Positions 4,000 to 56,427 of a stretch of 64,000 nucleotides of DNA are shown here, piece after piece. Made by a program: the position numbers and the translations under genes. This DNA is from Sisyra terminalis (lineage: Eukaryota; Arthropoda; Insecta; Neuroptera; Sisyridae), in assembly GCA_958496175.1 (NCBI GenBank), contig OY292278.1, positions 43,710,001 to 43,774,000 of the forward strand, given 5' to 3'. The stretch's first letter is position 1, and the number at the start of each line of letters is the position of its first letter. Under the pieces are notes generated by a model that did not search any database, was not told the DNA's origin, and saw only the letters and a list, made by a program, of their open reading frames with translations.

Positions 4000-4208
4000 T
4001 AAGTGATCATTTACCATTAGATTATTGTTAAGAATAAAACAAATAAAAAAATGTACATTAAATTATGAATAATTACTGAATATTTTTTTTCAGAAAGGAA
4101 ACATGTAGAAGGTAATATATCTTCAAAAAAAGTAGCAAAACATTTGCATATATTTGTCTAAAATGGAAGAATGTACGATTTTCCTTTTCCAAAATTTTTT
4201 TTCAATTC

Positions 4209-4885
4209 AAATCATAACTATTTTTGATTTTCGCGAATTTTAAATTGTCCTTTGTTAATTTTGAAGGGAAATTGTGGTGTATCCTTTACTCAAATTAATT
4301 TCAAAATCTATCGTTACAAATAATTCCTACAAATTATCTTGATAAATTCTGAATTTAAATTTCTATAACGATTTAAGAGCTAAACAAATAATTATAATTT
4401 AATATTAACTGAAAAAATCCTCCACTTGTATCCTTTTGTCGTATTAGAAATTTATCCTTTTTGGAAATTCGATGCATTATTAACATTAGTGTGTGTTTAA
4501 GAGTCACTTGAAAAGCTTTAAAAAAAAATCGTAAAATTTCATTTCTAATCATAACTATCTTTATTTTTCGCGAATTTTAAATTGTTCTTTGTTAATTTTG
4601 AAGGGAAATTGTGGTATATCCTTTACTCAAATTAATTTCAAAATCTATCGATACAAATAATTCCTACAAATTATCTTGATAAATTCTGAATTTAAATTTC
4701 TGTAATGATTTAAGAGCTAAACAAATAATTATAATTTAATATTAACTGAAAAAATCCTCCACTAGTATCCTTTTGTCGTACAAGAAATTTATCCTTTTTG
4801 GGAATTCGATTCATGATTAACATTAATATGTGTTTAAAAGTCACTTGAAAAGCTTTAACGAAAAAAATCGTAAAATCTGATTAAC
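4209..4885. repeat. Tandem direct duplication, two units of about 338 bp
   Basis: The block starting atcataactat at about 4209 repeats at about 4547. Both units carry ttaattttgaagggaaattg, tcctttactcaaattaattt, actgaaaaaatcctccact and gtcacttgaaaagcttt in the same order and spacing. They differ by scattered substitutions and small indels. No coding sense was seen. The duplication lies just downstream of the ATPase beta-like gene. Confidence 0.85.
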
Positions 4886-12808: not shown

Positions 12809-15499
12809 TTATATTGGTTCATTAAATATTCTTAAGTTTTGATAAGGAAGTTTAAACTTTATTTGGAATGGTGTGTTATGTTGTCTGATTTTGGTTACGG
12901 TTCTTGTTAATTCGTTTACGTCTAGTTGATTTTCGTAAAATTTTTCGGCTAGTTGCATAATGTAGTCCCTCATCATTGGTATGTCAGCATCATCATGGAG
13001 TTGACTTATTTTTGAGAAGGAATCACCTCCGAGGATCGTTCTTAGGCATTTATTTTGGAATCGTTGCAATTTTAGGATGTTTGTCGGTGCGGCTCCACAC
13101 CATGCTGGTGCTGCATATAGTATTATCGGTCGTACAATTGCTGTGTATATTAGTTTTTTGTTTTTTAGATTTAATTTCGATCCCCTGATGAGTAGTGGAT
13201 ACAGTTTTGTATATATTCCATATGCTTTTTTAATACAATGTTTGATGTGCTGTCTGTAGGTGAGTTTATTGTCCAAATGCACACCCAAATATTTGGCAGA
13301 TGTTGTGGGTGTTATAGTGTTTCCTTTTACCGATATATTTTGAATGATTTTCCCCTTGGTGAGACTTTTTGTGAAAATAACTACTTCGGTTTTCGTCGTG
13401 TTTAGGTTGATTTTCCAGAGATCGTAGTACGTTTCCAAGGCGTGTAGGTGGTATTGTATTTGTTTTGCAGCAACTATTGCGTGGAATGAGTGTGCATAAA
13501 TGGCGGTATCGTCTGCAAATACTGCCAGTTTCGTTTGTGGATATATTGGTAGGTCGTGTATATAAATGTTAAATAATGTTGGTCCCAGGACGGATCCTTG
13601 TGGAACACCGGCTTTGATTAGCTGTTTCTTGGATTTTTTGTCGTTTACCGTTACTTTAAAGTGTCTGTTTGTTAAATATGAGTAAATGAGTTGTATTATT
13701 TCTGGATTATAGTTACATTTGATCATTTTGTAGATTAAACCATCTATCCACACTCTATCGAAGGCTTTTTCTATGTCAAGTAGTAATAATACTGTTGTTT
13801 GATTTTTATTGAATCCTATACTGATGTCATTTATGAGTCTTGTTATTTGTTGGACTGTGTTGTGCCTTCGTCGAAATCCAAATTGATATTCCGGAATAAT
13901 TTTGTTTGTATCTTCGAAGTTGTTTAATTTTTCTAAAATTGTTTTTTCCATTACTTTACTTAGTGTAGATAGAAGGCTAATCGGTCTGTAGCTGATTGGT
14001 TCATTTCGTTTCTTCCCCTGTTTTAATATGGGTATTATATTGCTGGTTTTCCAGTGTTTGCTATAGTGTTTTAATTTGTAGGTTGCATTTATGATATGAG
14101 TAAACTGCTTTAATGCCTTTAGACTGAGATTTTTTAATATATGATTTTGGATTCCGTCCTGTCCGGGAGCCTTTTTTGATGGTAATTCCTTGATTATTTG
14201 TCTCACTTTTTTTGATTTGACACACATTTTACCCTCGGGTTGTACACTTTGGATAAATTTCCGTACCTCTCCGCTGATGTAGTTTTGGTCTTCCGTATTG
14301 GGATGTTTGTCTATATCGTGTATTTGTTCGAATGTGGTTGCAAGTAATTCGGCTTTATCTACGTCAGACATGGCTTCCACGTTTCCATGTTTGAGTGTTG
14401 GTATTGGATGATATTCTTTTTTCAATATTTTGGTCATATTCCATAGTGAATTGTCGTTGGGTTTTAGTTTTTCTAATTTGTTTGTCCAGGTTTCATTACG
14501 ATGTCGTTTTATTTCTGTCGCTATTTTGTTATTGAGTATATTCATTTCCTGTTTGTAGTAGGCTAATCTTGTATTTTGCCACCTTCTTCTGATATGATTT
14601 CTTTCTTTTATTAAATTTTTTATTTCGGTCGGCAGTTTGTCCATTTGTCGGTATGGATTTTTGTTCGGTATTGTTGATGTGATGCAATGTTGTATAATAT
14701 TGACAAATCTTTGAAGTTCTTGATCGAGTTTTTCAGCTGTACTAATATTGGGTGTAATTTTAATTTTTTGATTTAAGAGTAATCTGAATTTTGTCCAGTC
14801 TGCCAGTTGGTAGTTAAGCATCCTTTTAGATTGTATGTTTTTTTCTTCCCCTCCTATTTCGGTGATTATTGGTAGATGGTCCGAGTTAAGCTCGTTGTAA
14901 ACATTGAGCTGGCTTATATTAGTGATGTTTTTATTAATGGCTATATCTATTGCTGTCGGTGTTGAATTATTCATTGGAAAATGAGTTGGCTGATTTGGGA
15001 ACATCACTGTACAGTTGTTGTTTATAGTATATTGATAAATGGCTCTTCCTCTTTGGTTGTTAATATGAGAGTTCCAACTGTGATGTAGAGCATTGAGATC
15101 TCCTATCAATAGGACTTTGTTGGCCACATCGAATATTTTTCGAAGTTCTTCGGTTTTTAGTTTTCTGTTTGGGCTGTTGTAGCCGGCAACTATATGTATA
15201 TGACTCTTTAATTTGATGCACACATACTCTAATCCAATGTCGCCACTTAATTCGACTTCCGTAAATGGAACTGTATTCCTAATAAGTAAGGCTACTCCGC
15301 CAGCTGCGGAGCTTCTGTCTCTTCTTACTATTGTATAATTTTTTATTTTAATTTTGTCGGTTGCATTCAGTCTTGTTTCGTTAATTCCTATTATGTCCAA
15401 TTGTTTTCTGTTTATAAATTCTATTAATTCACCTACTTTTCCCCGTATGCCATTGGCATTCCAGCTGCATATTTTAATATTCGTTGTGTTGCGATCCAT
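12809..15499 (-). CDS. Retrotransposon ORF2: endonuclease-reverse transcriptase
   Basis: The protein is about 896 residues when started at the ATG of 15,499 (MDRNTTNIK). The frame is open up to 15,520 but begins there with TTG. The N-terminus is an APE-type endonuclease: CSWNANGIRGK, IIGINETRL, RDRSSAAGGVALLIR, LIGDLNALHHSWNS, DHLPI. The middle is a reverse transcriptase: SYRPISLLSTLSKVMEK, EYQFGFRRRHNT, LLLDIEKAFDRVW, GVPQGSVLGPTLFNIYI, and the catalytic FADDTAIYA. The thumb part ends at FNEPI with no RNase H. It nicks target DNA and copies its own RNA. It starts about 10 bp after the ORF1 stop, so translation probably depends on reinitiation or readthrough coupling. No stop or frameshift was seen. 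Confidence 0.95.
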   Translation of the reverse strand: MDRNTTNIKICSWNANGIRGKVGELIEFINRKQLDIIGINETRLNATDKIKIKNYTIVRRDRSSAAGGVALLIRNTVPFTEVELSGDIGLEYVCIKLKSHIHIVAGYNSPNRKLKTEELRKIFDVANKVLLIGDLNALHHSWNSHINNQRGRAIYQYTINNNCTVMFPNQPTHFPMNNSTPTAIDIAINKNITNISQLNVYNELNSDHLPIITEIGGEEKNIQSKRMLNYQLADWTKFRLLLNQKIKITPNISTAEKLDQELQRFVNIIQHCITSTIPNKNPYRQMDKLPTEIKNLIKERNHIRRRWQNTRLAYYKQEMNILNNKIATEIKRHRNETWTNKLEKLKPNDNSLWNMTKILKKEYHPIPTLKHGNVEAMSDVDKAELLATTFEQIHDIDKHPNTEDQNYISGEVRKFIQSVQPEGKMCVKSKKVRQIIKELPSKKAPGQDGIQNHILKNLSLKALKQFTHIINATYKLKHYSKHWKTSNIIPILKQGKKRNEPISYRPISLLSTLSKVMEKTILEKLNNFEDTNKIIPEYQFGFRRRHNTVQQITRLINDISIGFNKNQTTVLLLLDIEKAFDRVWIDGLIYKMIKCNYNPEIIQLIYSYLTNRHFKVTVNDKKSKKQLIKAGVPQGSVLGPTLFNIYIHDLPIYPQTKLAVFADDTAIYAHSFHAIVAAKQIQYHLHALETYYDLWKINLNTTKTEVVIFTKSLTKGKIIQNISVKGNTITPTTSAKYLGVHLDNKLTYRQHIKHCIKKAYGIYTKLYPLLIRGSKLNLKNKKLIYTAIVRPIILYAAPAWCGAAPTNILKLQRFQNKCLRTILGGDSFSKISQLHDDADIPMMRDYIMQLAEKFYENQLDVNELTRTVTKIRQHNTPFQIKFKLPYQNLRIFNEPI

Positions 15500-15509
15500 T
15501 ATATATTGA

Positions 15510-16811
15510 TTAATTGTCAAGCTGCTTACAGAAGTTAAAGAATTCGAAAAATTTTTCCGATTCTGATTTGCAATTTTTGATATTATTTCTTAGTTCTTTA
15601 ACTGCTTTTATCATTTTACTTATATTTAGAACTTTTTCTAATTCATTGACCTCCTTTTGAAATTCAAATATATCGCTAGTTGTATTATTTGACGATTCCT
15701 TTTGTTTCCACGCATTTGGTTTTTCGGGAATAATATTTTGTTGTACTGCTGTTTTGGGTGTCGGTAGCGGTGGGAATTCATTCTGGTTGAACTGTCTCAG
15801 TCTTGTTGTAGGTTTTTTGGCTGATGTCCTTCGTGTCTCAATTTCTTCCTTTCTTTTAATGTAAGCTTCGCAAATTGTGGCGTTTGCCGGGTGTGCTCCT
15901 CCACAATTCGCGCACCTTGCTGGTGTTGTTAGCGGTTTTGTGCATTCCCTCGTTAAATGAGGATTTGCACATTTAAGGCACATGGGGTCAGCAAAGCAAT
16001 TGCTAGTTGCGTGGCCCCACTCTTGGCATCTGTGGCATTGGGCTATAATTCGTTTCTTTTTATAATAGTCCCATCTTATACGGGTTTGGAGGACGTCTTT
16101 AATTTGGGTTTGAAGGAGTTTTAGCGACAGACCGTTGACTGTCACCATGTAGATACTCCGGTCTACCCCTTTCATTTTTCTGACGTTTTCTATTTTAACG
16201 CCCTTGCCTTCCAATCCCTCTTTAACTTCTTTTTCGTCAATTTCTTGGTGTAGTCCGTAGATGACATATGTTTTGTATTTATTATTCTTGTCGGTGTATG
16301 TGTGGAATGGGATTTTTTGCGCTACCCAGTTTTCTTTTAGTAGCACAAAGTCAGAATTGGTGTTTACGTGTATGATTATATTGTTTTTCTTGTATGTGAT
16401 TCTGAAATCACTTTTCACTATATTTTTAATATTGTTGATAAATTTTTTGTGTTCATCCACCATCCCATGAATAACGAATGGGGGAGGTTTTTTTGTTTCA
16501 CTGAGTTTATTTACACTGTTTTTGATTTCACTTTGTTTGTTTTGAACTTCTGAATCAGATTCTGCTTCACTTTCATCACTTAAAACGGCATATTTGTTGT
16601 GAGTTGATATCGTTGGTCCACTGCAACTGTCGGTGGACATCGTCCTCCTCTTAATACTCCTGGTAGACTCCATTCCGTGTGAAGACTCCTTTTGTTTTCT
16701 TTTGCTGTTTTTTTTGCTTATTATTTTAAAGTTGTCATTTTCAACTGCGGTGGAGTCATTACTCAGCGCTTGCTGAGTAATGTTTTTTAGGTTAGGTATA
16801 GTTGTATCCAC
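15510..16811 (-). CDS. Retrotransposon ORF1: gag-like nucleic-acid-binding protein
   Basis: The protein is 433 residues starting MDTTIPNLKN. The N-terminal half is basic and Ser/Thr-rich. The middle resembles the Jockey-type gag fold that precedes zinc knuckles. Three knuckles follow: CHRCQEWGHATSNC, CLKCANPHLTREC and CANCGGAHPANATIC. The C-terminus is charged and likely helical. Such proteins coat the element RNA and bring it to the nucleus. The stop overlaps the open stretch before the ORF2 ATG. Confidence 0.93.
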   Translation of the reverse strand: MDTTIPNLKNITQQALSNDSTAVENDNFKIISKKNSKRKQKESSHGMESTRSIKRRTMSTDSCSGPTISTHNKYAVLSDESEAESDSEVQNKQSEIKNSVNKLSETKKPPPFVIHGMVDEHKKFINNIKNIVKSDFRITYKKNNIIIHVNTNSDFVLLKENWVAQKIPFHTYTDKNNKYKTYVIYGLHQEIDEKEVKEGLEGKGVKIENVRKMKGVDRSIYMVTVNGLSLKLLQTQIKDVLQTRIRWDYYKKKRIIAQCHRCQEWGHATSNCFADPMCLKCANPHLTRECTKPLTTPARCANCGGAHPANATICEAYIKRKEEIETRRTSAKKPTTRLRQFNQNEFPPLPTPKTAVQQNIIPEKPNAWKQKESSNNTTSDIFEFQKEVNELEKVLNISKMIKAVKELRNNIKNCKSESEKFFEFFNFCKQLDN

Positions 16812-18540
16812 TTTTTTATTAGTTTCAACTATTTATAAAGTTAGTTTTACGATACTGGGTCTAATGTTATTGATTAATATTTATTTGGATATTTTTGATT
16901 TAATATAATAACGTAATTGTGGATTTTTAGTCAGATGTCAATTTAAAACGATCGGACGAGAACTCGGACGAGATGCGGTATGAACAGGTCTCGCTGCTCT
17001 TCCTGCGTCAGTAGAACGATTCATACCACTGAGCCGTAAAAATATGTTAATATCGAACGTGAAAACTCATATTTATACTCAAGAATTTTTTTTATCAAAA
17101 TTTTTGCATTATCCACAATTATTCGGTATGCCAATACAAAAGGATAAATTGTCGTGAAACTTCTGTACAACAATCTCAGAAAACAAACAAAAAATTCAGA
17201 ATGGGAATCGTACTTAAAAGTACCAGAATTTGGCTTAGTTTAGACACAAAATAGTAATATTAAATAAGGATTGCAGATAATAACTAAACAAATTATTATA
17301 TGCATACTTAAAGCTTTGTAATAATTTAAAACATTCCCCATTTTGTATTACCAATTTTGTATATTTTAAACTGCTGGAAAAATGAGTATTCTTTGTCGTA
17401 GACACCCTGAAATATAAAAATTCAAAAATAAAACATCGAATTTCCAAAAAGTAAATATTTATTTTCAATAAAGTATTTAATACATAAAGAATTTACAACT
17501 ATTGATATTACTATAATTATTTTTTACTGTATCGAAATTGTAACTTAATAACAATGATAATTTTAAATTTTACAAAAATTTGCAGTTGTTTTGCATATTA
17601 ATACAATTTCCATTTTATTTTAATAAGTTAAACCACCGCTGAAGTACTGATTAAACATATTTGCAACATACATTGCAACTTTTATTATTAACAGTAAAAC
17701 ATTTCTAATTTTTTTCTTTGTTATTGATTTTATCACTTAACACTTAAGATTTACACCAAATATTGGAAACTAACACTTTGTTTACACTTTCTTTTAAAAC
17801 ATTCACTCAAAAAATTCACTAATGGTTCTGCAATGATTAATTTTCCAACGTTCAGTATGATGATGAACTGTGATCCAAAAACGAATATAATCCTCCTTGG
17901 TGGTCGACACGTACCATAATGGAATTACTAAAGCAGAAACGGAAAAAATATTTTTTCTACATATAAAGCGACAGTACTTAACACTTAACACTTACCACTT
18001 AACTTTCTTTTCCAGGACAGTTATATTTCATTGGATAGGAAAGACTGTTGTTCTTCAAGTTCCAAGGAAAATCTGAAGAGGAAAAAAATCATTGTAACAA
18101 TTGTAAGAAAATATAAATTCTTAAGTCTTTAGAGGCTGCAATTCACAATAAATACATTGAGAATTTCCTCTCGTTTGTAATATTTCTAGTTATTCTTTTA
18201 CAAGTACATCACTGTATGAATGGTTGCATATACAACACATTTGTAAAAAAAACATTTTCCTTTAAATAACGTGGTTTATGTAGACTTTGAATTTGTATGA
18301 GTTGATCATTTTCTTATTCAGAAAACAAAATGGATTCTTTTTCTAAGTGCCAAATATAAAAAATCAATAATTAAATCTTAAAACTAATAAACCTTTGTAG
18401 GTCTACAGGTTACCAATCACCGATTCAATTATCTCATTATGCGAAATTATTCCATCAACTGATTTTATCAAATCTCAGGTTATCCTTCTGCAAAATTAAA
18501 ACTTTACGAACCATTTTTCACAGAAAAAATATTTATTATG

Positions 18541-25400: not shown

Positions 25401-26036
25401 GAACGATTACCTATGATAGCCATTTGAATAATCATTCAGCCAAGTGGCACTTCCAATTAATTGGATATACCTCATTAGTACCTAATATTTTTTATAGAAA
25501 GTGGACTGGGAAGTGGAACTAGTCGTCGTTATAGGAAAAACTGGTAGAAATATTCCAATTGCTCAAGCCTACGACCATGTCTTCGGATACACAGTTGCCC
25601 AAGACATCAGCGCTCGTGACTGGCAAAAGAGTCGAAACGGAGGACAATTTTTATTGGGCAAAACGATGGACACATTTTGTCCGCTAGGACCGGCTGTCGT
25701 CACCAAAGACTGCGTTCCAGATCCACACAACTTGAAAATCACATGCTCCATCAACGATGTGCTTAAACAAAGTGGCAACACCAACGAATTGATCTTCAAA
25801 GTAGACTTTTTGATCTCATATTTGTCACAGTAAGCCATATGAAAAGAAAAATCGATTAGAATGTGATCATTTATTTTTGTTTTAGAATTGTTACCCTTTA
25901 TCCCGGTGATTTGATCTTGACGGGGACGCCGGGAGGCGTCGGAATGTATCGCAATCCGCCCGAATATTTGAAGAAGGGTGATGTTATTGTTAGTTCCGTG
26001 GAAGGAGTGGGATGTCTCAGGAATAATGTTGTTTAA
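22469..26036 (+). CDS. FAHD2: FAHD2-type fumarylacetoacetate hydrolase-domain protein
   Basis: Exons are 22469..22764, 25150..25366, 25498..25829 and 25886..26036, giving 331 residues. The phases fit and the borders are GT-AG. The N-terminus [20 protein letters not shown] is basic and free of acids, as in a mitochondrial presequence. The FAH catalytic fold follows: [71 protein letters not shown] and [12 protein letters not shown]. Metal ligands are expected from the E of WEVEL and the D of QDISARDWQ. Family members decarboxylate or tautomerise oxaloacetate-like 2-oxoacids, and FAHD2 has been linked to enol-oxaloacetate tautomerisation. Length is near the family norm of about 314. Intron 1 (2.4 kb) is filled with MITEs and a ribozyme-like hairpin. 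It is tail-to-tail with bL35m. Confidence 0.95.
23030..23457. mobile_element. GGCTCAAGT-type MITE with a second copy nested inside
   Basis: The outer inverted ends are tggctcaagtccctttt and its partner, with caacgttgcatttt-like inner repeats. A second copy (23,101-23,322) with ends ttggctcaagtgtacttt and its mirror sits within it. Relatives lie at 24,457-24,682 and 57,228-57,468. It is in FAHD2 intron 1. No transposase was seen. Confidence 0.75.
23549..24436. mobile_element. hAT-type MITE with 8-bp target duplication
   Basis: The terminal inverted repeat TAGTGTCCGACCGA fits the hAT YARNG rule. Exact 8-bp duplications gaaatcag lie at 23,541-23,548 and 24,437-24,444. A sister copy without the nested hairpin lies at 27,990-28,524. 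The hairpin at 23,808-24,029 is inserted within this copy. It is in FAHD2 intron 1. Confidence 0.88.
23808..24029. repeat. Long hairpin with hammerhead-like cores in both arms
   Basis: The arms of about 95 bp pair over aattaaattgtgggcaata and the agcttcttgtggaatatt block. Each arm carries CTGAAGAA, a GTCA/TGAC stem and GACGAAACGTT: 23,936-23,967 on the plus strand and 23,871-23,902 on the minus strand. The plus copy is sense to FAHD2. See the finding on hammerhead-like motifs. Confidence 0.7.
24457..24682. mobile_element. GGCTCAAGT-type MITE copy
   Basis: The inverted ends are taggctcaaattcctttt and the mirrored cttaagcca. The inner motifs tatctggcaccattgccatt and aatgcaatgctggcagatat mirror each other. 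It is a diverged member of the family at 23,030 and 57,228, in FAHD2 intron 1. Confidence 0.65.
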
Positions 26037-26280
26037 ACTTTTAAAAAAAAGGAATTACGTTTTGTACATATATTTTATTTTTTTTTAAAAAAAAAGTGCA
26101 TTTTTTATTTTTAACGAGTCAGACGCTTATTCTTTCGCAGTACTTATGATTTTTTGGTACAAAGAAATTAATAAATTTGTTATACATACAGAAAAAACAT
26201 TTTTTTTCCTAACTACTTTTTAACACTTTTGAAATTTGTTCCAAGTTATTTTTATCGGTGTACCTAAGGAAATATAAAAA

Positions 26281-26458
26281 AAAAAGTATTTCATTTTTGT
26301 AATGCATGGTGAAAAATGTTTTAAGATGTGGCGCCGCCACAAGTATGTATGCAGTATTAACTATATACGGTAATATACGTTAGTACTCTAGACACACTTG
26401 TGGTAGCGCCACCTTTTGATACATCATGCCTTGTAAGATTGAAATGCCTTTTTTTATA
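26281..26458. mobile_element. Short palindromic MITE between two convergent genes
   Basis: The inverted arms of about 75 bp read aatgcatggtg...gtggcgccgccacaagt against acttgtggtagcgccacc...catcatgcc. It fills much of the 525 bp between the FAHD2 and bL35m stop codons. No transposase was seen. Confidence 0.7.
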
Positions 26459-26561
26459 CTACCAGAGGTATCAGTATTAAAACACGCGATAGTTCTTATA
26501 TTAATCTTTTATGGAACCCTATGACTTAGTAAATTTCTAGAAGGGAAAGTTTATTTCAATT

Positions 26562-27301
26562 TTATAGAGGCTTTTTACGAGTGTATAGAAATTCTTCTCG
26601 TTGATGGTATGGTTCATATGGATCGTCGACATAAAACTTTGGTCGTTTCCAGTATTTTGTGACCATTTTATCAAGTAATGTAGCTTGGGTGGCATTAACG
26701 AAGACATGTTGTCGTAATCGACGTTTTAATGCAGCGGATTTTCTCCATAAATGCTTATGTCGACCGGCCCTGGTCCGAATCCATCCACCCCAATCCAACC
26801 GATAAAATCGTTTCAGGACAGCACGTACAGTTTTACGTTTCCCTTTTTTAAATGAAAATTTCGTCACAGTCCTGTTAGTAACCTCGAATTGGTCTTTTGG
26901 AACTAATAGATTACTAGCCGGATACAAAATCGCATTTTGCGAGGTTATGTTTCCTAAGATGGGTCTTTGGTTACCGAATAAGGGCCAATTGGTAAGGGTT
27001 TTGGCAATTTGAAGTTGTGGCCTCCGAAATTGAGGACTCAGGTCCTGTTGGAATAGTTTCAATGCTAAAAAAATTGCAAAAATTAGTAGGTCTTGCATGA
27101 AATTTGGTTAAACAAAAGCACAAATTTGAAGTAAAAAATAAATGTTAATATCTTTTTAAAATTATATTTGTCAACAAAAAACGGTAATTAAATGTCTCAA
27201 CAATTTGCTGAGAAGAAAATTTAAGAGGGTTTTCTCATATTTCTAGCACAAAAATGCCATTTTTCATAACACTTACCGTTCCGAATTGTTAATCGCAACA
27301 T
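26562..27301 (-). CDS. mRpL35: Mitochondrial large-subunit ribosomal protein bL35m
   Basis: Exons (minus) are 27277..27301 and 26562..27064, giving 175 residues. The first exon encodes MLRLTIRN and joins at an alanine to LKLFQQDLSPQF, a basic mitochondrial presequence. The core of the family follows: VTKFSFKKGKRKTVRAV, RFYRLDWGGWIRTRAG, HLWRKSAALKRRLRQHVF, TLLDKMVTKYWKRP and FYVDDPYEPYH. This protein is part of the mitoribosome large subunit. The uninterrupted frame extends beyond the acceptor to a false ATG at 27,098, but the splice from the 27,301 ATG gives a proper presequence. The start codon is 115 bp from that of MIC60 on the other strand, so the two genes likely share one promoter. Length is near the family norm of about 188. 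Confidence 0.95.
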
Positions 27302-27416
27302 TTTCCTTTAGTGTTTGACAGTTGAAGTGTATAACACGTCGGGTTGGTGGAAGGTTAACAATTTTTCGAAATTTGGCTCAAAAACACCCTAATCCTCCCC
27401 TAAAAAATTCGAAACG
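27302..27416. promoter_or_regulatory. Divergent promoter shared by bL35m and MIC60
   Basis: Only 115 bp separate the two start codons, so both promoters and 5' UTRs must lie here or overlap the first exons. No TATA box was seen. It is less AT-rich than flanking DNA. Confidence 0.65.
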
Positions 27417-30400
27417 ATGAATAAATTAGTTTTACTACCCTTAAAAGTGTCCACACCCGTAAGTATCCTCTTTATTTATAAACTATAAACATTTGACATG
27501 CTAACCCCAAAATTCCCGATTAACTAATTGAGTTATGTAATGCTCTATGATGACTGCACTTTTAGATACGACGAATTATATTGAATCCAAAATTTCGACA
27601 ATATGCAACGCCGTCAGTAAAAAAGGCACAAGTTTCCCTAGGTGGATGGTATACGGTGACGGCGTTTGGGGTCCTCAGTGCTGGAACCGTATGCTTGGCC
27701 AAATATAGTACAGATTTTCGAGAATATGTCAAAGGAAAGTCACCGGAAGCAGATGAATTTTTGAAATTCCTGTTATGCGAGGAACAAACGTATGCGGAGA
27801 GATGGGACAATTTTGTCAATGGAATTTACGGAAAAGTTAAAGAAACACTTCCAGTGCGTTCAGCGAAAAAACAACGGATAGACACCTCCGAAACGGATTA
27901 TGAGAATGAAAGCGAAGATTTTAAAAAACATATAACTCTTGGTATTGCTACCTTATATAAAACTTTTAATTCGTTTTTAATTCATTTACTAGTGTCCGAC
28001 CGATCTTTCGGTTTCGGCTGACCTCAAGCCGAAACTTCGACCAAAACCGAAACTGAATTCATAAGAAAAAAAAATTATGAAATTATTGTTTTTCACATAT
28101 TTTTTGATTCTTCAATTATGAATACTGATAAAAAATTTTGTTTAATATTATCTTTATTTTCTTTTTCAGTTCGAAAGAAAACTAATCAAAGTTTAGAAGA
28201 ATTTATTTTGTTTTATGTACCTAAACATATTAGGTACAAAAGTAATTTTGTTTTGTAACTTTTTTTTTTTAATTATTTGATGTTATTCGTGACCAATATT
28301 AAAAAGAAATATTAGATGTATTTCTTTCAAATCAACCCCTTATTTCAGCATAAATAATTAATTTGAAATAAGAAATGATAATAATATGTTAATGATTAGC
28401 TCTTATATTAGAGATTAAATGACTAATGAATATCTATAAAATTTAAAAGTAAAGACCGGCAAATAATGATTAACTTTTTTTCTACGAAAACATGACTTTA
28501 TATGGAAGTTTCGGTCGGACACTATAACTTACTAATAAGTATTAATGTTGAAAAATAAATCTTCAAAGTTCCATTTTTTCATCAATTAAATAATGAATTA
28601 TTTTGATCTTTTTTATTTATAAAAATTTAATTGGTACCTCATACGATTATGTAAGCTAATATAATATACATTGATAAAATATTCAGAGGACTAGGATCAA
28701 AAATAATCGATTAAAACTTTATTTATTACATGCGACGTTTCGGCTCCTTTATTGATCCTTCCTATTTACGAACGCCTGAGGAAGGCTCAATAAAAGAGCC
28801 GAAACGTCGCATGTAATAAATAAAGTTTTAATCGATTATTTTTGATCCTAGTTTTAACCGATTATTTTTAACTGAAATTTTACAATAATAATATTCTTAT
28901 ATCTTCTATAATATCATAATGTAAGCTATTAATATACCCTATTATTAGTGGAACAGTAAGTAGTAATTCAGAGTGTCCAGTTCTTTGCCAACCAAAGTTG
29001 GTTTTATTATAAAAAATGCTCTACTAAAGAATGATCAATGTTGCTATTATAAAGTGTGAAATAAAATCAATATTATGCTTTTTCATAAATGGGTATTCTC
29101 ATGAATTTCCGAAAATAGAAACAAATTTATAAAAATTTGATTTTTTTTTTTGGTCAATTTTGTAGTATTTGTGTAACTAGATTCAACCAATATAATGGTC
29201 CCCAGAATAAACTTATTTTTGACAAACTATAAGGATTATTTTTAATTTTAAAAGTAAGGGGATAGTTTTTATATGCCATATCGTTATTGAATTGTTATTG
29301 TTTAATAGAGAGGAAAAAGTTTGGACCCGAACAATATCATTGTTACGTAAATATAATACTTCTATATAGTGTTATTTGACTCGTTTATTTTGAAAGTGGC
29401 GTAAGTCAATTTCAAGGACGGTCTATATGGTAATTCTTCTTCTTGTAACTAGAACAAAGTACTGTGTATACAATATATAGAATATATTGAATATATATTT
29501 ATATATCATTATATTAAATTATACTACATAAATTGGACCGCAATATATTCTATACCATATATTGTATACACAGTATAACTGTTCAAAGTCAGCGAAAAAA
29601 TCTTATTTTGATTAGAACAAAGTATGTTAATTATTTAACTGCTAAGTTTTCAGAAATTACTGATTTCATTTTAGTTGTTAACAAAAACGCCAATTATTCC
29701 TTCCTGCTTAGTATCTTATGTTCCTATGATTAAAAATGATAATAGTATAGGGATTGTTCTTGAAATGGACTTAACTCACTTTCAAAATAAATAGTTCATT
29801 TGTTGTCCTGCGTCGTTAAAATGAACTACTTGTATTTCGGCATTGAACTTATAGGAATAATTTTTACTAAAAGTAATATGAATGATGTTTTATCTTTAAA
29901 CAGGAAAAACCGGTGAATTTAAGGATTAAATTAGCAAAGAAATATCAAATCAAGTTTAACTGATTTTTAGGGTTTTCCTAACAGCTGGGCACCTAGTACT
30001 TAACGGAAGGCATTAAAAATATTAAGTTTGCGATTAGGGAATCAAAGAAAATTGATTTTTTTAGTTTTCCGATTCATATGATGTTATATTTCACATATTA
30101 TAGCGACATTTGAAGTCATTTCTAAAGTTAATTTAAGAAATGGAATATTGAAAATTTTATTTTAAATTTGTTTTAATTTCATTGTGTGTCACTAATTCAT
30201 TTTTAACTCAGACATTTCAGCTAAACCAAACGAAACGAAAACTGAACAGTTTGAAAATGATTCTGATCCAAAAGATATAAATATGTTGAATAAAGGTTTG
30301 TCGTTGTTCTTTTTGCTCTAACAACATAAAATACAGTTACTGACTGAAAAAACTAATTTTATTTCATTGTTTCGATAGACGAAGATTCCAATGCATCTAA

Positions 30401-33124
30401 AAACACAGTATTGAACATTTCCTCGAAACCATACCACAACGTTTTGGAGTTGGAGTTGAAATCATCGGCGGAGGAAGCGTTGCAAGCATATCGCGATGCA
30501 ATCACATCGGCCAAAGATTTCGTTAATCTAATCGACCACATAATGAACAGCGACTTTGAAAAAATCGACTCAAAACTATGGCAATCGGCGCGGATCAAAT
30601 CCGAACAAAAGCAAGCGACTATGAAAAAAGCTGAAGAAACTTTAAGTTCAGCACTGAAGAATGTTGATCGGCTGAAACGGCACATCATAAGCTCGGCCAA
30701 CCAGGAGGCGGCACCACAAGCCGTCAGTCTCTTGCACGATTCCATTCGTCAAATCGAACACCGTCTACAACAGGCCAAAAGTGAGTTTGGCAATGAAATC
30801 CACAATTTACAATTGGCCGATGATTTTTGGGCGAAAATCGAACTAGGACGAAAACACTATCAAGAAGAGTTGGAAATTTTGTGCCCATCCATTCGGCTAG
30901 AAGATGAACAGTTGCACTTGTCCAACGCGGAAATCGATATTTTCATAATGCACGCAAGAAAAAATATCCTCTACCTGCAAAAAGAATTGGCCAGATTGGA
31001 AATAAAACGTGGGGCTCAAATTCGGCACGCCATCGAGACCGCCAAGGCTAACAATGATCCATCTTCTTTGATTGAAGAAAAAATCAACTTCCAAATCGAT
31101 CAAGAACGGAGGCGAATGGTGGAAGAATTCCAGAAGAAAGTATGTATGACTTTAGTGATATTTTTTACTTGGTCTCAAATACCAGAAGTAGAATTACAAC
31201 TTTATAATTTATATTTTTTTTTTTGTTAGCAATTGGAAATGGATGTTCAAATCGATAAACAAATTCGTATTCAACTGAAGCGTCAAAGTGAAGCACATGC
31301 TGATCATTTATCAGAAGCCTTACGTGCCAAAGAGGATGAATTAAAACGACATTACGAAAGAATGTTACAAGAAGAAAGTGTTAAAGCTCGTTTAGAATAT
31401 AAGGAGGAATTAGCTACGATGGTTGGACGTATTAAAGGCATTGATGCAGTTTTAAGTGGTAATTTTTATACCTTATTTAATCGGTTATATTTATTAATAG
31501 TTTGGCAATTCTTAATTTTCATCAATTTTTAAATAGTTACTAAAATAAAACAAGAATGAATGAAGGCTTTACAGAGATATACTCCTAGCCAATATTTAAA
31601 GTACCATAATATTTGTATTACAAAAATAATTAATGATGTAAGGAATATTATGTCCTTAAGAGTATACTAATTAAGAGGCGTCTAGCGCAAACATTAAAGT
31701 TGAAGAGGCAGACGAACTCGCAAAGGCGGATTCAAGAATGTCATTCATGGGTCCAGAGCCGGCTATAGGCCTACCAAAGTGCATAACACTGGGTAGAATA
31801 GCTGAATGGACGCAGAATGAACAAATAAAATCCTGGAATAACTATGCAGGAGGCAAGTTCTCAAAGGTCATGATAAAGAAACCTTTGAAAGAACATAACA
31901 AAAGACTTCTAAATCTTAGAAAGAAGGACATCAAAAGACAGGACACTGCAACTTGAGGAAACATCTCCAAACTATAGGGAAGAACACAGAGTCAGCAGTT
32001 TGCAGGAAATGTGGCGTGGAAAATGAAACTGCCTCCCACGTACTATTTGACTGCCCAGCCATGACTCAAAGTCGTCTCAACTCGCTTGGTCCACCCGAAC
32101 ATGAGCTGGGAAACATACACAGAGATCCAGTGGACTGTCGGCTGAGATTTATTTCAGAGGCAGACCTGACCAGTTGGAACTGAAATTAAACTGGGGCGCA
32201 ATAATTCTTTTAGGACGCAGCGCAGAGGAACTCGCATGAGAGGCCCCCAGATCAAAGGAAAAAAAAACATCAAAGTTCTCTATCCTAAACTGTGGTCAAT
32301 GGAAATTTGTAAAGAAATGCATAGATATTCCTTACATCATAAATTTATGTCCACAAAATAAGTTTCATAGTAAAAATATAAGCCTTTTTTAAGGATTTCT
32401 ATTTGTTTAGGGATCTAGTTTTATGAAAACTTACAATCTTTTCACTGGTTTTTGGTGTAAAAAAATTTTAAGTCTTGTTAAATTTTCAGAACGAGCAGTC
32501 GTTGAAAAAAGTGCAAAGCAAGCGCAGGCTTTGTGGAGTGCCAGTCAAACATTGTATCGTGCACTGAAAAATAATGTTCCGGGAATTACTTATTCAGAGC
32601 AAATTCGACCATTACGCGGCGAAGTTAATGCCATTAAAAAAGCGGCCGCCGATGGTGACAAATTGGTGCAATCGGTGATTGCCGCTATACCAGTGGAGGC
32701 TCTCGATCGCGGTGTTCATAACGAGGATATTCTTCGCGAGCGTTTTCTGAAAGTCGAAAATGTTGCACGAAAATTGGCGTTGGTGCCGAAGGAAGGTGGT
32801 AAAATACCGGTTTATTTCCTTTCCATTGTTCAATCGATGTTGGTGATAAAACCCAAGTACAAAGCGATCTCATCGAGGGAAATAAACAACGACGTAACTG
32901 ATTTCAGTAAATTAGATACGTACGATATCCTCAATCGGGCCAGATATTGGCTCGATCGTGGAAACTTTGTCCAAACTTTGCGATACATGAATTTACTAAC
33001 GGGAGCTTCGCGTGTCATTGCCGAAGATTGGATTCGAGAAGCGAAAATTTTATTGGAAACACAACAAGTAGCGAACACCTTATTAGCCCATGCAACAGCC
33101 CTAGGACTGACGTCTCAATCGTAG
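27417..33124 (+). CDS. Mic60: MICOS complex subunit MIC60 (mitofilin)
   Basis: Exons are 27417..27458, 27566..27941, 30212..30295 (or from 30221), 30379..31139, 31230..31458 and 32490..33124, about 708 residues. The N-terminus MNKLVLLPLKVSTPIRRIIL is a mitochondrial presequence. A membrane segment lies near residues 40-60 (WYTVTAFGVLSAGTVCLA). An acidic linker and a long coiled coil follow. The C-terminal mitofilin domain has EKSAKQAQALWSASQTL, LRGEVNAIKKAAADGD, RARYWLDRGNFVQTLRYMN and LTGASRVIAEDWIREAK. MIC60 shapes crista junctions at the inner mitochondrial membrane. Introns 2 and 5 are large and hold MITEs, a hairpin and a retroelement fragment. The short acidic exon 3 is the least certain. 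Confidence 0.93.
27990..28524. mobile_element. hAT-type MITE in MIC60 intron 2
   Basis: The ends TAGTGTCCGACCGA and TCGGTCGGACACTA match the copy at 23,549-24,436 in inverse orientation. Flanks tcatttac and taacttac agree at 6 of 8 bases, a worn target duplication. It begins 48 bp after the exon 2 donor. Confidence 0.85.
28691..28851. repeat. Perfect 56-bp-arm hairpin with a hammerhead-like core
   Basis: The arms ctaggatcaaaaataatcga... and their reverse complement are identical over 56 bp. The right arm and loop carry CTGAGGAA, a GGCTC/GAGCC stem, then GAAACGTC on the plus strand (28,776-28,809), which is sense to MIC60. The left arm has lost the CTGANGA part. Confidence 0.75.
29381..29795. 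mobile_element. TIR element, MIC60 intron copy
   Basis: The inverted ends are tttattttgaaagtg plus taagtcaatttcaaggac, and the mirrored match. A relative with the same ends lies in EMSY intron 3 (48,565-49,214). The inside holds a stretch (29,498-29,618) like the retroelement tail at 18,944-19,045. Confidence 0.6.
31680..32200 (+). pseudogene. Non-LTR retrotransposon RNase H fragment in MIC60 intron 5
   Basis: Read across one frameshift it gives EEADELAKADSRMSFMG, then KDIKRQDT, then TGHCNLRKHLQTIGK, then CRKCGVENETASHVLFDCP. This is the end of the RNase H domain and the zinc-knuckle tail found in I/R1-type non-LTR elements. It has the same orientation as MIC60. No reverse transcriptase is present, so it is a truncated relic of a family different from the Jockey elements. 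Confidence 0.75.
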
Positions 33125-51626: not shown

Positions 51627-54600
51627 TTATTTAGTTACAGCATGTAAGGCGTTTGCTAAAAATTCAACGTTTTTTGAATTGACTCCAGCGAATGAAACAT
51701 AACCATCGTGTCTTAAGTAGATGTGATGATCTTTTCTCAATGATAAAGTCTACAAAAATAAAAAATTATTACAAAAAAAAAGTATTGAAAACATCTTTAG
51801 TTTAGGGAAAGAGTTGGTATAGAATGTCTAGTTTATTTTTTCCAAAAAAATTTCCTGACTTGAGATCCAAATTTGCTTTTTTCCTGACCTTATTCATGAA
51901 AATTTCTCAGCTAAAAATTGATCAATATTGTAAATTTTTATATTAATTCCATTGAAATAATTTTTCTACGTGCAGGTTCTTTACATACTATAGTTGGTTG
52001 CAATATCGTCTATATCTTTCCCAACGTAAGTACTAATAAATGAACAACAAATGGATAGTTTAAGATGAATTAAATACGATGCCACTTAAATCGAAAAAGG
52101 TGAAAATCACGTCAAAAAAGTATTTTAACGCCCGATAATAAGAGGGAACAGTTCTTTTATAATATGTACAGAAAAATATTGTATTGGGCATCTATGAATG
52201 ACAAAAAATGCAACAATGGTTATTTAACAGCATAAAAATTTTATTTACAGCTATATAATATTGTAAAGATGATATTAACAAACGAGTACGATTGGGAACA
52301 ATAAACGTATAAAATTGAGAATTGTGGAAGTATTTTTTATCAAAAAGCATGGTGGCCAGGGTAATCTTCTTTTGAAATATGAAATCCGCTCGGTGCTTTT
52401 TCCAATTCGAGAACTTTTTTTATTTAAGTGTAATCAAAATTATATTAAGTATGAACCACATCTAAATATTATAAGAAGTTAATAAAAATGTTTAAATTTG
52501 CAACTTATCCACCTATTTAAAAAAGGCAAATTAAAAAACTAATTTTTGATTATAAATTAAAGTTGATAAATTGATATTAATATTGATATACCTAGCAAAT
52601 TTATCAGTTTATATTTATCAAACAAATTGATTTTACAAACGTGCAATATTAAACAAACTTTTGTAAAGGCAGCAGCACTTTTCGTAGAAATGTGAAAAGA
52701 AACAGTTCCGGAATTTGTTAATTATTTCAATATACTACAATACAATACTACTTGGCTAAAATCATATCAAAATTAGTTCGATGGTACATCATCAGGATAT
52801 CTAAGTACAAACAATGGGATTAAATCTACCAATTCTATAATTATAAAAGAATACACTTTAGGAGATTGTTTATCTGTTTCTTGATTTTTGAACAAATTAA
52901 ATGATTTACTAATTAAATGATCTATGGACAGAAATCCAGAGCTTTAATGGTCCATATTTTTTTCTGTTAAACCAATAGTTACTTTAAAAGAATGGACCGA
53001 ATCTTATCATTGAACATTGCAAAACAAGAAAATAATAAAAATGGATAATACATATTATGGATGTACTTTAAATTCCAGTTATAAAAGTATAACTTCAGAA
53101 TTGATAACCAAATATATTATTGAAGGTTGGGAAACTTTTGAAGATTTTGAACAGAATCTTATGGCAGTAGGACATTTAATATAGATGCTGATATTAGTAA
53201 ATGTAATTGTATATGCCCAATATTCAAAAAAATTATAAATGCAAGCATACGTTGGGTTTTCTTATCCGTTTGAAAAAAAAAATCAAGTCCTTAGGGAAAC
53301 TAAATGTATTCCTTTAGGACAAAAAAATTGATGTAGTGCCCATCAAAAGCAAAGAAAACATTAATTATTCAATAAATTTACTTATTTGACCTCAAAATGT
53401 ATGCCACTATGCGTTTTTAATTGTATTTTCTACATGCTTGTGTTGTTGTTTTATACTTAATTTATGCGTCTATTTGATCTATTTGGTAGTAAAATGTTTA
53501 AATTTGGCGTGCCTATTTAAAATACCTATTTAAAAAATTAAATATCTGGCGTTAATTAACATATTTTAATGTGCATTTATATATAGCCCAATTAAATATG
53601 TAAATGAAACCATGTATGCACTGTTGTATTGCTAGTTGTCTACAAACTATAGTCAATTTGTCAATGTAATGCATTTATTCGTATATTTGATCTATCTTGG
53701 AGTTAAATGTTTAAATCTGACGTGCAAATCACCTCTTTAAAAAATTAAATATCTGGCGTTAGTTCTCATATTTAAATGTGCACTTATTAAATCTACCAAT
53801 TCCATATTTAAAAAAGAATACACTTTAAGAGATCGTTTATTTGTTTCTCAGTTTTTAAATAAATTAATAAATAAATTATTTACGTATTAAATGATCTATG
53901 AACAGAAATCCAGAGCTGCAATGCTATAAAATGTTTTCTATGAAACCAACAGTTACTTTAAAAAAATGGACCGAATCATTGAAATCAATTGAAATATATA
54001 CATTACATTGACACATTGACAATAGTTTGTAGGCAACTAGCAATACAACAATGCATACATGGTTTCATTGGGTATTGATCATTGGGCATTGCCAAACAAG
54101 AAAATAATAAAAGTGGATAATACATACTACAGATGTACTTCAAATTCGAGTTATAAAAGTATGACTTCAGAATTGATAACCAAATATATTATTGAAGACT
54201 AGGAAACTTTTGAAAATTTTCTACAGAGTTTTATGGCCCTTAGGCGATTAATATAGATGCTGATATTAGTAAATGTAATTTTATGTGCCCGATATTTCAA
54301 ATAAAATATAAGTGCAAACATACGTTGGGTCTTTTAATCCGTTTGAAAAAAATTGAAGTCCCTGAGGAAACTAAATGTATTCCTTTAGGACAAAAACATA
54401 AATGTGGACGCTCATCAAAAGCAAAGAAAGTATTAATTATTCAATAAACTTACTTATTTGACCTCAAAATGTAAGCTATTTGGCGTTTTTAATTGTATTT
54501 TGTTCATGCTTGTGTTGTCGTTTTATACTTATTTTATACGTCTATTTGATCTATTTTGTAGTTAAATGTTTAAATTTGGCGTGCCTATTTAAAATACCTA

Positions 54601-56427
54601 TTTAAAAATTTAAATATCTGGCGTTAATTAACATATTTTAATGTGCACTTATATAATATAGCCCAATTAAATATGGGAATGAAACCATGTATGCATTGTT
54701 GTATTGCTAGTTGCCTACAAACTATAACCAATGTCAGGGGGGTCTAACTGAGCCAATGTAATGTAATTTAAAACATATTTAAAATCATCTTCAAAAATCT
54801 TTAATCAACGAAAAAAATATTAAGACCAATTTCCCACCTGTTTTTCATTGAGAACCAAAACTCCACGCATTCCATTTTGTTCAATCAAATAATTCCAATC
54901 ACAAGACGAACCTTTTTTCTTTAAAATATCAACCAACTTCTTTCGAGTACAATAAATCCTGTCGGACACAGATAGCAACTCTTGCATCCTAAAACAAACC
55001 TTTGTATACATTCAGATCGAACTAATTTATATCAATTCAAAAAACCATTCTTTTTTTAAATTGGAATCCTGCAAAACTGATAGGGCGATTCTTGCTCCAT
55101 GCAACGGTGGATTAGAGTACAAACTTCGCACAGCAATTTTCAAATGTGAGAGTACTTTTTTCGCCACATCTTTCGATTCAGTTAAAAACCACAAGACACC
55201 CACGCGATTGCCGTATAGTCCCATATTTTGGGCGAAACTTTGGGCGACGGCCACTTCTTGGCCGTCGGCTATGAATTGCTGGATTGGAAGTGCATCTTCG
55301 GAAATTGAACCCGAAGCAAAACCCAAACAAGCTAAATCGAACACAGGGAAAAGTCGCATTGTCTTACAAATGTTGGATATCTCTTTCCATTGTTCGGGGC
55401 TGGGATCGAATCCTGTGGGATTGTGAGCGTTGGCATGAAATAGAACTATTGCAGTCGAAGGAATTTCCTGGAAAAAATCATAAATTAAGATGAAAATTGA
55501 ACCTATGTTTAGAGCTACGGTTAAGCTATATTCAAGGAAATTGAAAGCAATTTTTTTTGGTATTTGTATAAAATGGAGCTTTTCGAAAGATCTTAGCAGA
55601 CTTTAACTATATTTAAAATATAAGAAATATGCCAATAGTAAATAATATAAATGAATCAAAAACTATTTAATGATTAGATTGATTGGCAATCGAAATTTGG
55701 CGGTAAAAATCATTTTTTCTTCAATATGATAATAGTTTGCTTTAAGTAACTTGAACTCTAATTTTATAGATAAAAGAAAAGCATTTTACTTTAAGACTTG
55801 ATATAAAATTTGAATAATCAATTGTCTTCTGTCCTCGTTTGTAGTAATCATATTTTTTTACGTCTAAACCGGCATGTTTGAAAATAAGCAAATGGTTGTC
55901 CCAGGAAGGTCGTGGGATATAAACACATTTGCAGCCTCTGTACCATCGAACCATAAATTCAGCAGCAACTCGTAAAGCTCCAGTTCCGGACAAAGTTTGC
56001 GACATAGCAATAAGTTTCGAAGTCAAAGCATTGTGACTATCGCCAAGAACTAGACCTACAGCTTTAGTGCATAACTCAGGCATTCCTGAAATTGGTAAGT
56101 ATTCTCGATCCATTTTTTTCTTGAAAATTTCCATTTCCGCTTTCCGAACACTCGGAAATACATAGGGTTTGTCGTTGTCGTCTCGATATTGACGAACTGT
56201 AAGATCGATTTTCTGTTTATTTTGATCTCGAATGTACATTTTGTACAGTTCTAGATGGATATTCGGAGGACCTGATTCAAGTCTTTGCCACACACCCCTA
56301 AAACAATATCGTTAGGAAACGAAAAATTAAGTATTTTGGTGGATTTGGGATACATTTTACGAATTCCATTCTTGGCATAAAAACTCAGTTGCTTTGAACT
56401 GATGAAAAGTTTAATAAATTGATTCAT
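51627..56427 (-). CDS. GOT2: GOT2-like aspartate aminotransferase paralogue lacking the PLP lysine
   Basis: Five exons (minus): 56354..56427, 55790..56297, 55046..55467, 54838..54988 and 51627..51749, giving 425 residues, the normal GOT2 precursor length. The basic N-terminus MNQFIKLFISSKQLSFYAKN looks like a mitochondrial presequence. The fold is well kept: YVFPSVRKAE, REYLPISG, TLSGTGALRVAA, PSWDNHLLIF, HNPTG, SNPPLHGARIA, IYLRHDG. However, the lysine that binds PLP is glutamine (Q274 in SFAQNMGLYG, codon 55,228-55,230), the arginine that holds the substrate alpha-carboxylate is tyrosine (Y402 in HDGYVSFAG), the PLP-contacting tyrosine is cysteine (C241 in FDLACLG), and the GVGAYR loop is TVRQYR. 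Aminotransferase activity is therefore unlikely. Open frames and good splice sites argue against a decaying copy. A non-catalytic role is inferred. Confidence 0.93.
51750..54837. repeat. Intron 4 of the GOT2-like gene: two diverged copies of a SWIM-finger-bearing repeat
   Basis: Blocks at about 52,836-53,600 and 53,788-54,660 are direct repeats (gaatacactttaggagat/gaatacactttaagagat; atgatctatgRacagaaatcc; cagaattgataaccaaata). On the plus strand the second copy reads CPIFQIKYKCKHTLGLLIR then EVPEETKCIPLGQK, and the first reads KCNCICPIFK then, after a frameshift, the matching part. This resembles a SWIM-type zinc finger (CxC...CxH), common at the end of MULE-type transposases. Stops elsewhere show decay. 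Palindromic bits with catgtatgca recur at 53,610, 54,045 and 54,690. Confidence 0.65.

What the first reader, a model, noticed from the sequence alone, without database searches (positions are those of the whole stretch)
51627..56427. Intact mitochondrial aspartate aminotransferase paralogue with its active site dismantled
Seen: five exons join to a 425-residue GOT2-like protein with no stop. The PLP-Schiff-base lysine is Gln274 (CAA), the alpha-carboxylate arginine is Tyr402, the PLP O3' tyrosine is Cys241, and the glycine of the GVGAYR loop is Arg60. By contrast, phosphate and fold residues (SGTGA, HNPTG, the Asp of FDLA, the Arg of GNRVG, the Trp and His of WDNH) are kept. Known: the lysine is required for transamination in this family. 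Inferred: this is a pseudoenzyme kept under selection, perhaps partnering the true GOT2 as a heterodimer, binding a dicarboxylate or PMP, or serving the fatty-acid-uptake role ascribed to GOT2.
Basis: partly seen in the sequence, partly recalled or inferred. Interest (0 to 1): 0.88.

Follow-up and report, generated by a model that had tools for sequence, protein, structure and literature searches.

The report
Dead mitochondrial aspartate aminotransferase copy
An insect genome carries a second, intact copy of a central mitochondrial enzyme that has lost the lysine and other residues it would need to work as that enzyme, yet still looks protected by natural selection, so it probably does a different, non-catalytic job.

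Summary
Five GT-AG exons on the minus strand (51627-56427) give a 425-aa GOT2-like protein without a stop. Gln274, Tyr402, Cys241 and Arg60 replace the Schiff-base Lys258, the alpha-carboxylate Arg386, Tyr225 and Gly38; Ile17 is also lost (His39). The same genome holds an intact GOT2 7.8 Mb away on the same contig, and a GOT1-like gene. Exons 2-5 of the two GOT2 genes have identical lengths, the four introns share position and phase, and 400 codons align without an indel: a DNA-level duplicate, not a retrocopy. Neutral decay is very unlikely: 0 of 1500 simulated neutral copies at each of three divergences lacked a stop, and retention is highest at family-invariant sites. No Lys-less relative was found, but the databases seem to hold no close relative of this insect, so the requested conserved clade was not testable. 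The loss is not specific to the active site: first-shell and other near-invariant residues are lost at similar rates. Best reading: a mitochondrial, dimer-forming pseudoenzyme kept for a non-catalytic role; partnering GOT2, or a structural sperm-mitochondrial role like Drosophila S-Lap proteins, are the leading inferred modes. Expression is untested.

The parts
56354..56427 (-). Exon 1 (74 nt): start codon and presequence-like N-terminus (5 Lys/Arg, no Asp/Glu in the first 28 residues)
55790..56297 (-). Exon 2 (508 nt, same length as exon 2 of own GOT2): N-terminal arm and first part of large domain; I17H (His39), G38R (Arg60); phosphate loop SGT and Trp157/His160 kept
55046..55467 (-). Exon 3 (422 nt, same length as in own GOT2): rest of large domain; Y225C (Cys241), K258Q (Gln274); Asn210, Asp238, Ser271, Arg282, Arg308 kept
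55228..55230 (-). CAA codon, Gln274 in place of the PLP Schiff-base lysine
   Evidence: Lys in 120 of 120 listed hits
54838..54988 (-). Exon 4 (151 nt, same length as in own GOT2): small domain; near-invariant Phe replaced by Arg376 (Phe360 by my offset)
51627..51749 (-). Exon 5 (123 nt including stop, same length as in own GOT2): R386Y (Tyr402), stop codon
51750..54837 (-). Intron 4 (3.1 kb) with direct repeats spaced 0.97-1.07 kb and 77-nt inverted arms, mobile-element-like; non-coding

Best explanation
A duplicate of the nuclear gene for mitochondrial aspartate aminotransferase (GOT2) that lost catalysis and was kept for a non-catalytic role. SHOWN from sequence: intact five-exon gene, gene structure shared with the genome's own GOT2, loss of Lys258, Arg386, Tyr225, Gly38 and Ile17, signs of retained purifying selection. 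INFERRED: import into mitochondria (basic, acid-free N-terminus); folding as an AAT-type dimer whose large domains still form the platform and whose phosphate cup, Asp222, Asn194 and Trp140 could still hold PMP or PLP without a Schiff base; no transamination. INFERRED, weaker: it works as a non-catalytic dimeric building block or partner, probably in one tissue, the male germ line being the best guess because Drosophila uses testis-specific paralogues of metabolic enzymes in sperm mitochondria (S-Laps, two of which tested inactive; Bb8). My estimate: about 0.85 for a selected pseudoenzyme without aspartate transamination, about 0.35 for a male-germline role.
For: Gene model. Own GOT2 at C5:51549525-51551056 with exon lengths 508/422/151/123 and phases 2/0/2/0 identical to the window gene, 400 codons without an indel, 185 of 400 residues identical. 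A GOT1-like locus on C6 keeps the lysine and arginine, so canonical functions are covered. 0 of 1500 neutral simulations at each of three divergences stayed free of stops; mean 9.8 to 14.9 stops. Retention rises with family conservation: 73 of 92 invariant sites against 64 of 117 sites at 85-99.9%, p 0.0002. Pooled dN/dS 0.18 (NG86) or 0.33 (LWL85). Near-invariant sites are kept more in the large domain (59 of 71) than in small domain plus N-terminal arm (29 of 47), p 0.017 uncorrected; the subunits associate mainly through their large domains (PMC6715241, passages). Lys258 mutants K258A and K258C are reported inactive (PMC12018205, passages). [quoted passage not shown] GC3 is 0.34 against 0.45 in own GOT2, close to four other coding stretches of the window (0.30-0.33), which would fit lower or narrower expression.
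Against: No expression, proteomic or localisation data. First-shell retention is no higher than elsewhere (10 of 15 against 78 of 103), so retained ligand binding is not specifically shown. The domain difference vanishes over all sites (133 of 272 against 60 of 126). No orthologue was found with which to estimate a branch-specific dN/dS; dS is saturated and YN00 failed. Nothing in the sequence itself points to testis.
Confidence: 0.6

Rival explanations
1. Prozyme: the copy pairs with the true GOT2 in the matrix. It gives Tyr70 and Arg292 across the interface to the only live active site (that of GOT2) and so tunes GOT2, as SPT LCB1 does for LCB2.
For: Y70 bridges to the opposing active site, and R292 of one chain and R386 of the other bind the substrate together (PMC5643538, passages). 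Tyr70 and Arg292 are both kept (Tyr91, Arg308). Ungapped alignment with own GOT2 and the better kept large domain allow a mixed dimer. Precedents: LCB1 lacks the PLP lysine and works in a heterodimer (PMC3794620, passages); a dead DHS paralogue raises activity of its partner 3000-fold (PMC3663545, abstract).
Against: 2 of 2 trans against 9 of 14 other first-shell residues kept is not significant (p 1.0). A homodimer would need the same residues. The position of the copy in the tree is unresolved, so co-evolution with GOT2 was not tested.
Confidence: 0.25
2. Structural protein of sperm mitochondria (paracrystalline material or shaping), a counterpart of Drosophila S-Lap proteins and Bb8.
For: Precedents of testis-specific metabolic-enzyme paralogues in sperm mitochondria: S-Laps and Bb8 (PMC6388916, passages). 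The copy has the longest branch of 122 tips and no orthologue was found, which fits fast-evolving reproductive genes. Mouse Got1l1, another AAT-family duplicate, is highly expressed in testis but showed aminotransferase activity (PMC4282708, passages).
Against: No expression data. 11 of 16 first-shell residues, including the phosphate cup, are kept, which a purely structural role does not require.
Confidence: 0.3
3. It binds PMP/PLP or a dicarboxylate without Schiff base, as a sensor or carrier, or runs a different PMP-dependent chemistry.
For: Residues corresponding to Tyr70, Gly108, Thr109, Arg266 (phosphate; PMC6715241, passages), Asn194, Asp222, Trp140 and Arg292 are kept; Ser107 is kept too (Ser128).
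Against: Retention of the first shell is not above background. Gln is a poor base (general knowledge); alpha-carboxylate Arg386 and O3' Tyr225 are lost together.
Confidence: 0.15
4. A pseudogene in decay whose reading frame is intact by chance.
For: 30 of 118 near-invariant residues lost, not concentrated in the active site; GC3 is near that of other window genes and below own GOT2.
Against: 0 of 1500 simulations without a stop at each divergence, no indel in 400 codons, all introns GT-AG, retention graded with conservation.
Confidence: 0.07
5. Fatty-acid binding or uptake role ascribed to mammalian GOT2/FABPpm, freed from catalysis.
For: The moonlighting role of GOT2 is described in reviews (PMC9719944 and PMC12364705, passages).
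Against: The paper that reports the predicted binding site (PMC3167029, cited) is not held, so retention of those residues was not tested; nothing in the sequence points to this role.
Confidence: 0.05

Closest known systems
GOT2, mitochondrial aspartate aminotransferase (class I-alpha, Pfam PF00155)
   Same: Ungapped alignment over residues 28-425 with a solved GOT2; same lengths of exons 2-5 and same intron phases as the genome's own GOT2; presequence-like N-terminus; phosphate cup kept
   Different: Lys258, Arg386, Tyr225, Gly38 and Ile17 replaced; 30 of 118 near-invariant residues lost; very long branch
SPTLC1/LCB1 subunit of serine palmitoyltransferase (fold type I PLP pseudo-subunit)
   Same: PLP-enzyme homologue without the PLP lysine, beside a live homologue in the same genome (PMC3794620, passages)
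   Different: Different subfamily; LCB1 is an established heterodimer subunit, here no partner is shown
Drosophila S-Lap proteins
   Same: Insect paralogues of a metabolic enzyme with altered catalytic residues; in mitochondria (for the window copy only suggested by its N-terminus)
   Different: Leucyl aminopeptidase family, unrelated; eight members, testis-specific, with genetics (PMC6388916); here a single gene without expression data
Trypanosomatid deoxyhypusine synthase dead paralogue
   Same: Catalytically dead paralogue beside a live one (PMC3663545, abstract)
   Different: Different enzyme; activation is shown there, only conceivable here
GOT1L1 (mammals)
   Same: Divergent aspartate aminotransferase duplicate
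   Different: Named after GOT1, not GOT2; recombinant protein showed aminotransferase activity (PMC4282708, passages)

Membership tests
Aminotransferase class I/II fold family (PF00155) | Full-length profile match above the curated cut-off | tested here: met
   209.9 bits against 19.7, profile positions 2-361 of 361
Functional mitochondrial aspartate aminotransferase (GOT2) | Schiff-base lysine (Lys258) | tested here: not met
   Gln274; Lys in 120 of 120 listed hits and in own GOT2
Functional mitochondrial aspartate aminotransferase (GOT2) | Substrate carboxylate arginines Arg386 and Arg292 | tested here: not met
   Tyr402 in place of Arg386; Arg308 (Arg292) kept
Functional mitochondrial aspartate aminotransferase (GOT2) | Mitochondrial import | not testable with these tools
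   Only the make-up of the N-terminus was examined: 5 Lys/Arg, no Asp/Glu, largest 18-residue hydrophobic moment 0.38 (own GOT2 0.30)
Pseudoenzyme | Family fold with catalytic residues lost | tested here: met
   by sequence; inactivity itself not assayed
Pseudoenzyme | Retained by selection | tested here: met
   indirect, no orthologues or population data
Prozyme-type heterodimer partner (SPT LCB1-like) | Stable complex with the live paralogue | not testable with these tools
   Trans-donated Tyr70 and Arg292 kept, not significant
S-Lap-like sperm structural pseudoenzyme | Testis expression and presence in sperm mitochondria | not testable with these tools
   no expression data in the tools
Processed retrocopy | Introns absent | tested here: not met
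   four introns at the same positions and phases as own GOT2

The most novel reading that the evidence does not exclude
A one-sided aspartate aminotransferase: the Lys-less copy heterodimerises with GOT2 in the matrix, completes the active site of GOT2 with its own Tyr70 and Arg292, has no live site itself, and thereby resets malate-aspartate flux in one tissue. This would be the first prozyme of the class I-alpha aminotransferases that I know of (from recall).
Probability: 0.2. Interest if true: 0.75.

Novelty: new variant of a known kind. Interest (0 to 1): 0.5.

Why it matters
Aspartate aminotransferase is the textbook PLP enzyme, and its engineered K258A and K258C mutants are reported inactive (PMC12018205, passages). 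A natural copy lacking Lys258, Arg386 and Tyr225 together, yet apparently kept by selection, would be a natural experiment on what the fold is good for without its chemistry, and would extend the dead-paralogue theme (LCB1, the dead DHS paralogue, S-Lap) to the malate-aspartate shuttle. In the listings I saw no title or abstract opening about a naturally Lys-less aspartate aminotransferase; the library is open-access only and listings are capped, so this is weak evidence of novelty.

Tried and rejected
Retrocopy: rejected, four shared introns. Chance frame: rejected by simulation, with the limit that own GOT2 stands in for the ancestor. Active-site-specific dismantling: tested and not supported. 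Excess retention of residues donated across the dimer: not significant.

Placing the duplication: FastTree joins the copy with a fast GOT2-like protein of the weevil Rhynchophorus (0.969). The C20 tree gives 90/88 with a long-branch warning. Sisterhood with own GOT2 is not rejected (p-AU 0.48), and in a quick tree without the weevil row the copy meets the yeast outgroup, again a long-branch warning. Left open; these trees used 42 (41 without the weevil) of the 120 hits. Rare states shared by the two were not taken as proof.

Species: mRpL35 of the window (tree) gives no close named relative. The top hit (Timema) aligned as an internal repeat and was disregarded; the nearest rows are two unnamed proteins, then (support 0.733) a group of 31 rows of which the 25 printed are mostly mosquitoes by the names. 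I call the source an insect only.

Not done: structure prediction of the spliced protein, since the tool's description limits it to sequence that the window's DNA gives directly; no structure library was searched. The intron-exon structure of other insects' GOT2 was not compared.
Full report
What is there. On the minus strand five exons (56354-56427, 55790-56297, 55046-55467, 54838-54988, 51627-51749) with GT-AG introns join to a 1278-nt frame for 425 residues without an internal stop. The protein matches Aminotran_1_2 over its profile and aligns without a gap from residue 28 to the end with a solved mitochondrial aspartate aminotransferase (3hlm). I took the sixteen residues within 3.4 A of cofactor or ligand in the E. 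coli enzyme from PMC3823064 (passage seen). Relative to the own GOT2 the copy keeps 11 of 16 and loses five: I17 to His39, G38 to Arg60, Y225 to Cys241, K258 to Gln274, R386 to Tyr402. I set the correspondence of that numbering to this protein by motif and by the ungapped alignment.

Is it unusual? In the protein search 2955 sequences passed E 0.001 (7996 candidates scored) and 120 were listed; 120 of 120 keep Lys, Arg, Tyr and Gly at the four columns. The highest identity printed is 50%. A second search restricted to residues 234-290, meant to favour relatives with Gln274 and Cys241, had 17 candidates and 12 hits; 12 of 12 have Lys (KNMGLY) there. Both searches find relatives by shared five-residue words, so divergent orthologues can be missed, and the mRpL35 protein of the window finds no close relative either. 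Absence of a Lys-less clade is therefore not shown.

The true GOT2. The window lies at C5:43710001-43774000 of a 376.6-Mb assembly in 11 contigs. A search of that assembly with the protein gave 14 matches, which fall into three loci: the window gene (5), C5:51549525-51551056 (3) and C6 near 33.947 Mb (6); only the best candidates are scored by that tool. The second is a complete GOT2 of 434 residues with 118 of the 118 near-invariant residues (it is itself one of the 121 comparators). The third is GOT1-like and has the lysine (SFAKNFGLY) and the arginine (NGRI) in the matched stretches. Window gene and GOT2 share exon lengths 508, 422, 151 and 123 nt for exons 2-5 and intron phases 2, 0, 2, 0; 400 codons align without an indel and 185 residues are identical. 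It is a DNA-level duplicate.

Is it under selection? Starting from the own GOT2 frame, random substitution with the window's base composition up to 34, 45 or 52% changed residues gave on average 9.8, 12.9 and 14.9 stops; 0 of 1500 runs in each case had none. The copy keeps 73 of 92 residues that are invariant in 121 relatives, but 64 of 117 that are 85-99.9% conserved (p 0.0002); neutral decay would hit both alike. Pairwise dN/dS is 0.52/2.88 (NG86) or 0.52/1.58 (LWL85), with dS saturated and both branches pooled; YN00 failed. The copy's branch is the longest of 122 (1.12 against a median of 0.07), so constraint is relaxed as well as present. The own GOT2 branch is long too (0.40, rank 4 of 122), as is the window's mRpL35 (rank 7 of 121), so part of this may be a fast or isolated lineage.

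Against a selective dismantling. Among 118 near-invariant residues the copy keeps 10 of 15 first-shell ones and 78 of 103 others (p 0.53; the sixteenth first-shell site is not near-invariant). Conserved residues (97% or more) within four positions of the five lost ones are kept 21 of 27, elsewhere 80 of 110 (p 0.81). So the catalytic residues went along with a wider relaxation. Near-invariant sites are better kept in the large domain (59 of 71) than in the small domain with N-terminal arm (29 of 47; p 0.017, one of several comparisons made, uncorrected), and the difference is absent over all sites (p 0.83). Domain limits follow PMC6715241 (passages), which also states that the subunits associate mainly through their large domains and that the small domain moves on substrate or inhibitor binding.

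What it would do. K258A and K258C mutants of the enzyme are reported inactive (PMC12018205, passages). With Arg386 and Tyr225 lost as well, aspartate transamination is very improbable. The kept phosphate cup (PMC6715241, passages), Asp222, Asn194 and Trp140 would allow non-covalent PMP or PLP, but since first-shell residues are kept no better than the background this is only permitted, not shown. Tyr70 reaches into the opposite active site and Arg292 of one chain acts with Arg386 of the other (PMC5643538, passages); Tyr70 and Arg292 are kept, so a mixed dimer with GOT2 would have one complete site, that of GOT2. This resembles LCB1/LCB2 (PMC3794620, passages), but two residues prove nothing. 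The other leading mode is structural: Drosophila S-Lap proteins with altered catalytic residues are components of the sperm mitochondrial paracrystal, and the two tested members were enzymatically inactive (PMC6388916, passages). A long branch and no detected orthologue suit such a role; no expression evidence exists here. Lower GC3 than GOT2 (0.34 against 0.45), close to four other coding stretches of the window (0.30-0.33), speaks mildly for lower or narrower expression.

Verdict. The finding is real and the pseudoenzyme reading is well founded. The specific function is open. Pseudoenzymes arising by duplication are a known kind; a selected, Lys-less aspartate aminotransferase is, as far as my searches reach (titles and abstract openings of the listed papers seen), an unreported variant. 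PMC9309667, a review of aminotransferase evolution, does not use the word pseudoenzyme (term search only).

Noticed in passing
window 12809-16832, minus strand: Long open frames of a non-LTR retrotransposon (endonuclease and reverse transcriptase in one 926-aa frame), with a 440-aa frame upstream that matches no Pfam family but looks gag-like; apparently young.
   Followed up: partly
window 52819-54732: Intron 4 of the copy contains direct repeats spaced 0.97-1.07 kb (81-93% alike) and 77-nt inverted arms, probably a mobile element that duplicated or inserted twice.
   Followed up: partly
P0034 (Rhynchophorus ferrugineus, returned): A lysine-retaining, fast-evolving GOT2-like protein in a weevil, labelled mitochondrial-like; divergent GOT2 duplicates may recur in insects. 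It joins the window copy in trees, possibly by long-branch attraction.
   Followed up: partly
L001 (own GOT2): The canonical GOT2 of this genome has a long branch (0.40 against a median of 0.07) while keeping 118 of 118 near-invariant residues; partner co-evolution or a fast or isolated lineage.
   Followed up: partly
window 4200-4876: Tandem duplication of a 337-bp unit, 93% matching.
   Followed up: no
window 25498-33121: Genes of probable mitochondrial proteins lie close together: a fumarylacetoacetate-hydrolase-domain gene, mRpL35 and mitofilin/Mic60, the last ending about 18.5 kb from the GOT2 copy.
   Followed up: no
P0121 (Timema californicum mRpL35): Database entry appears to repeat the same C-terminal segment twice, probably an annotation artefact.
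   Followed up: no
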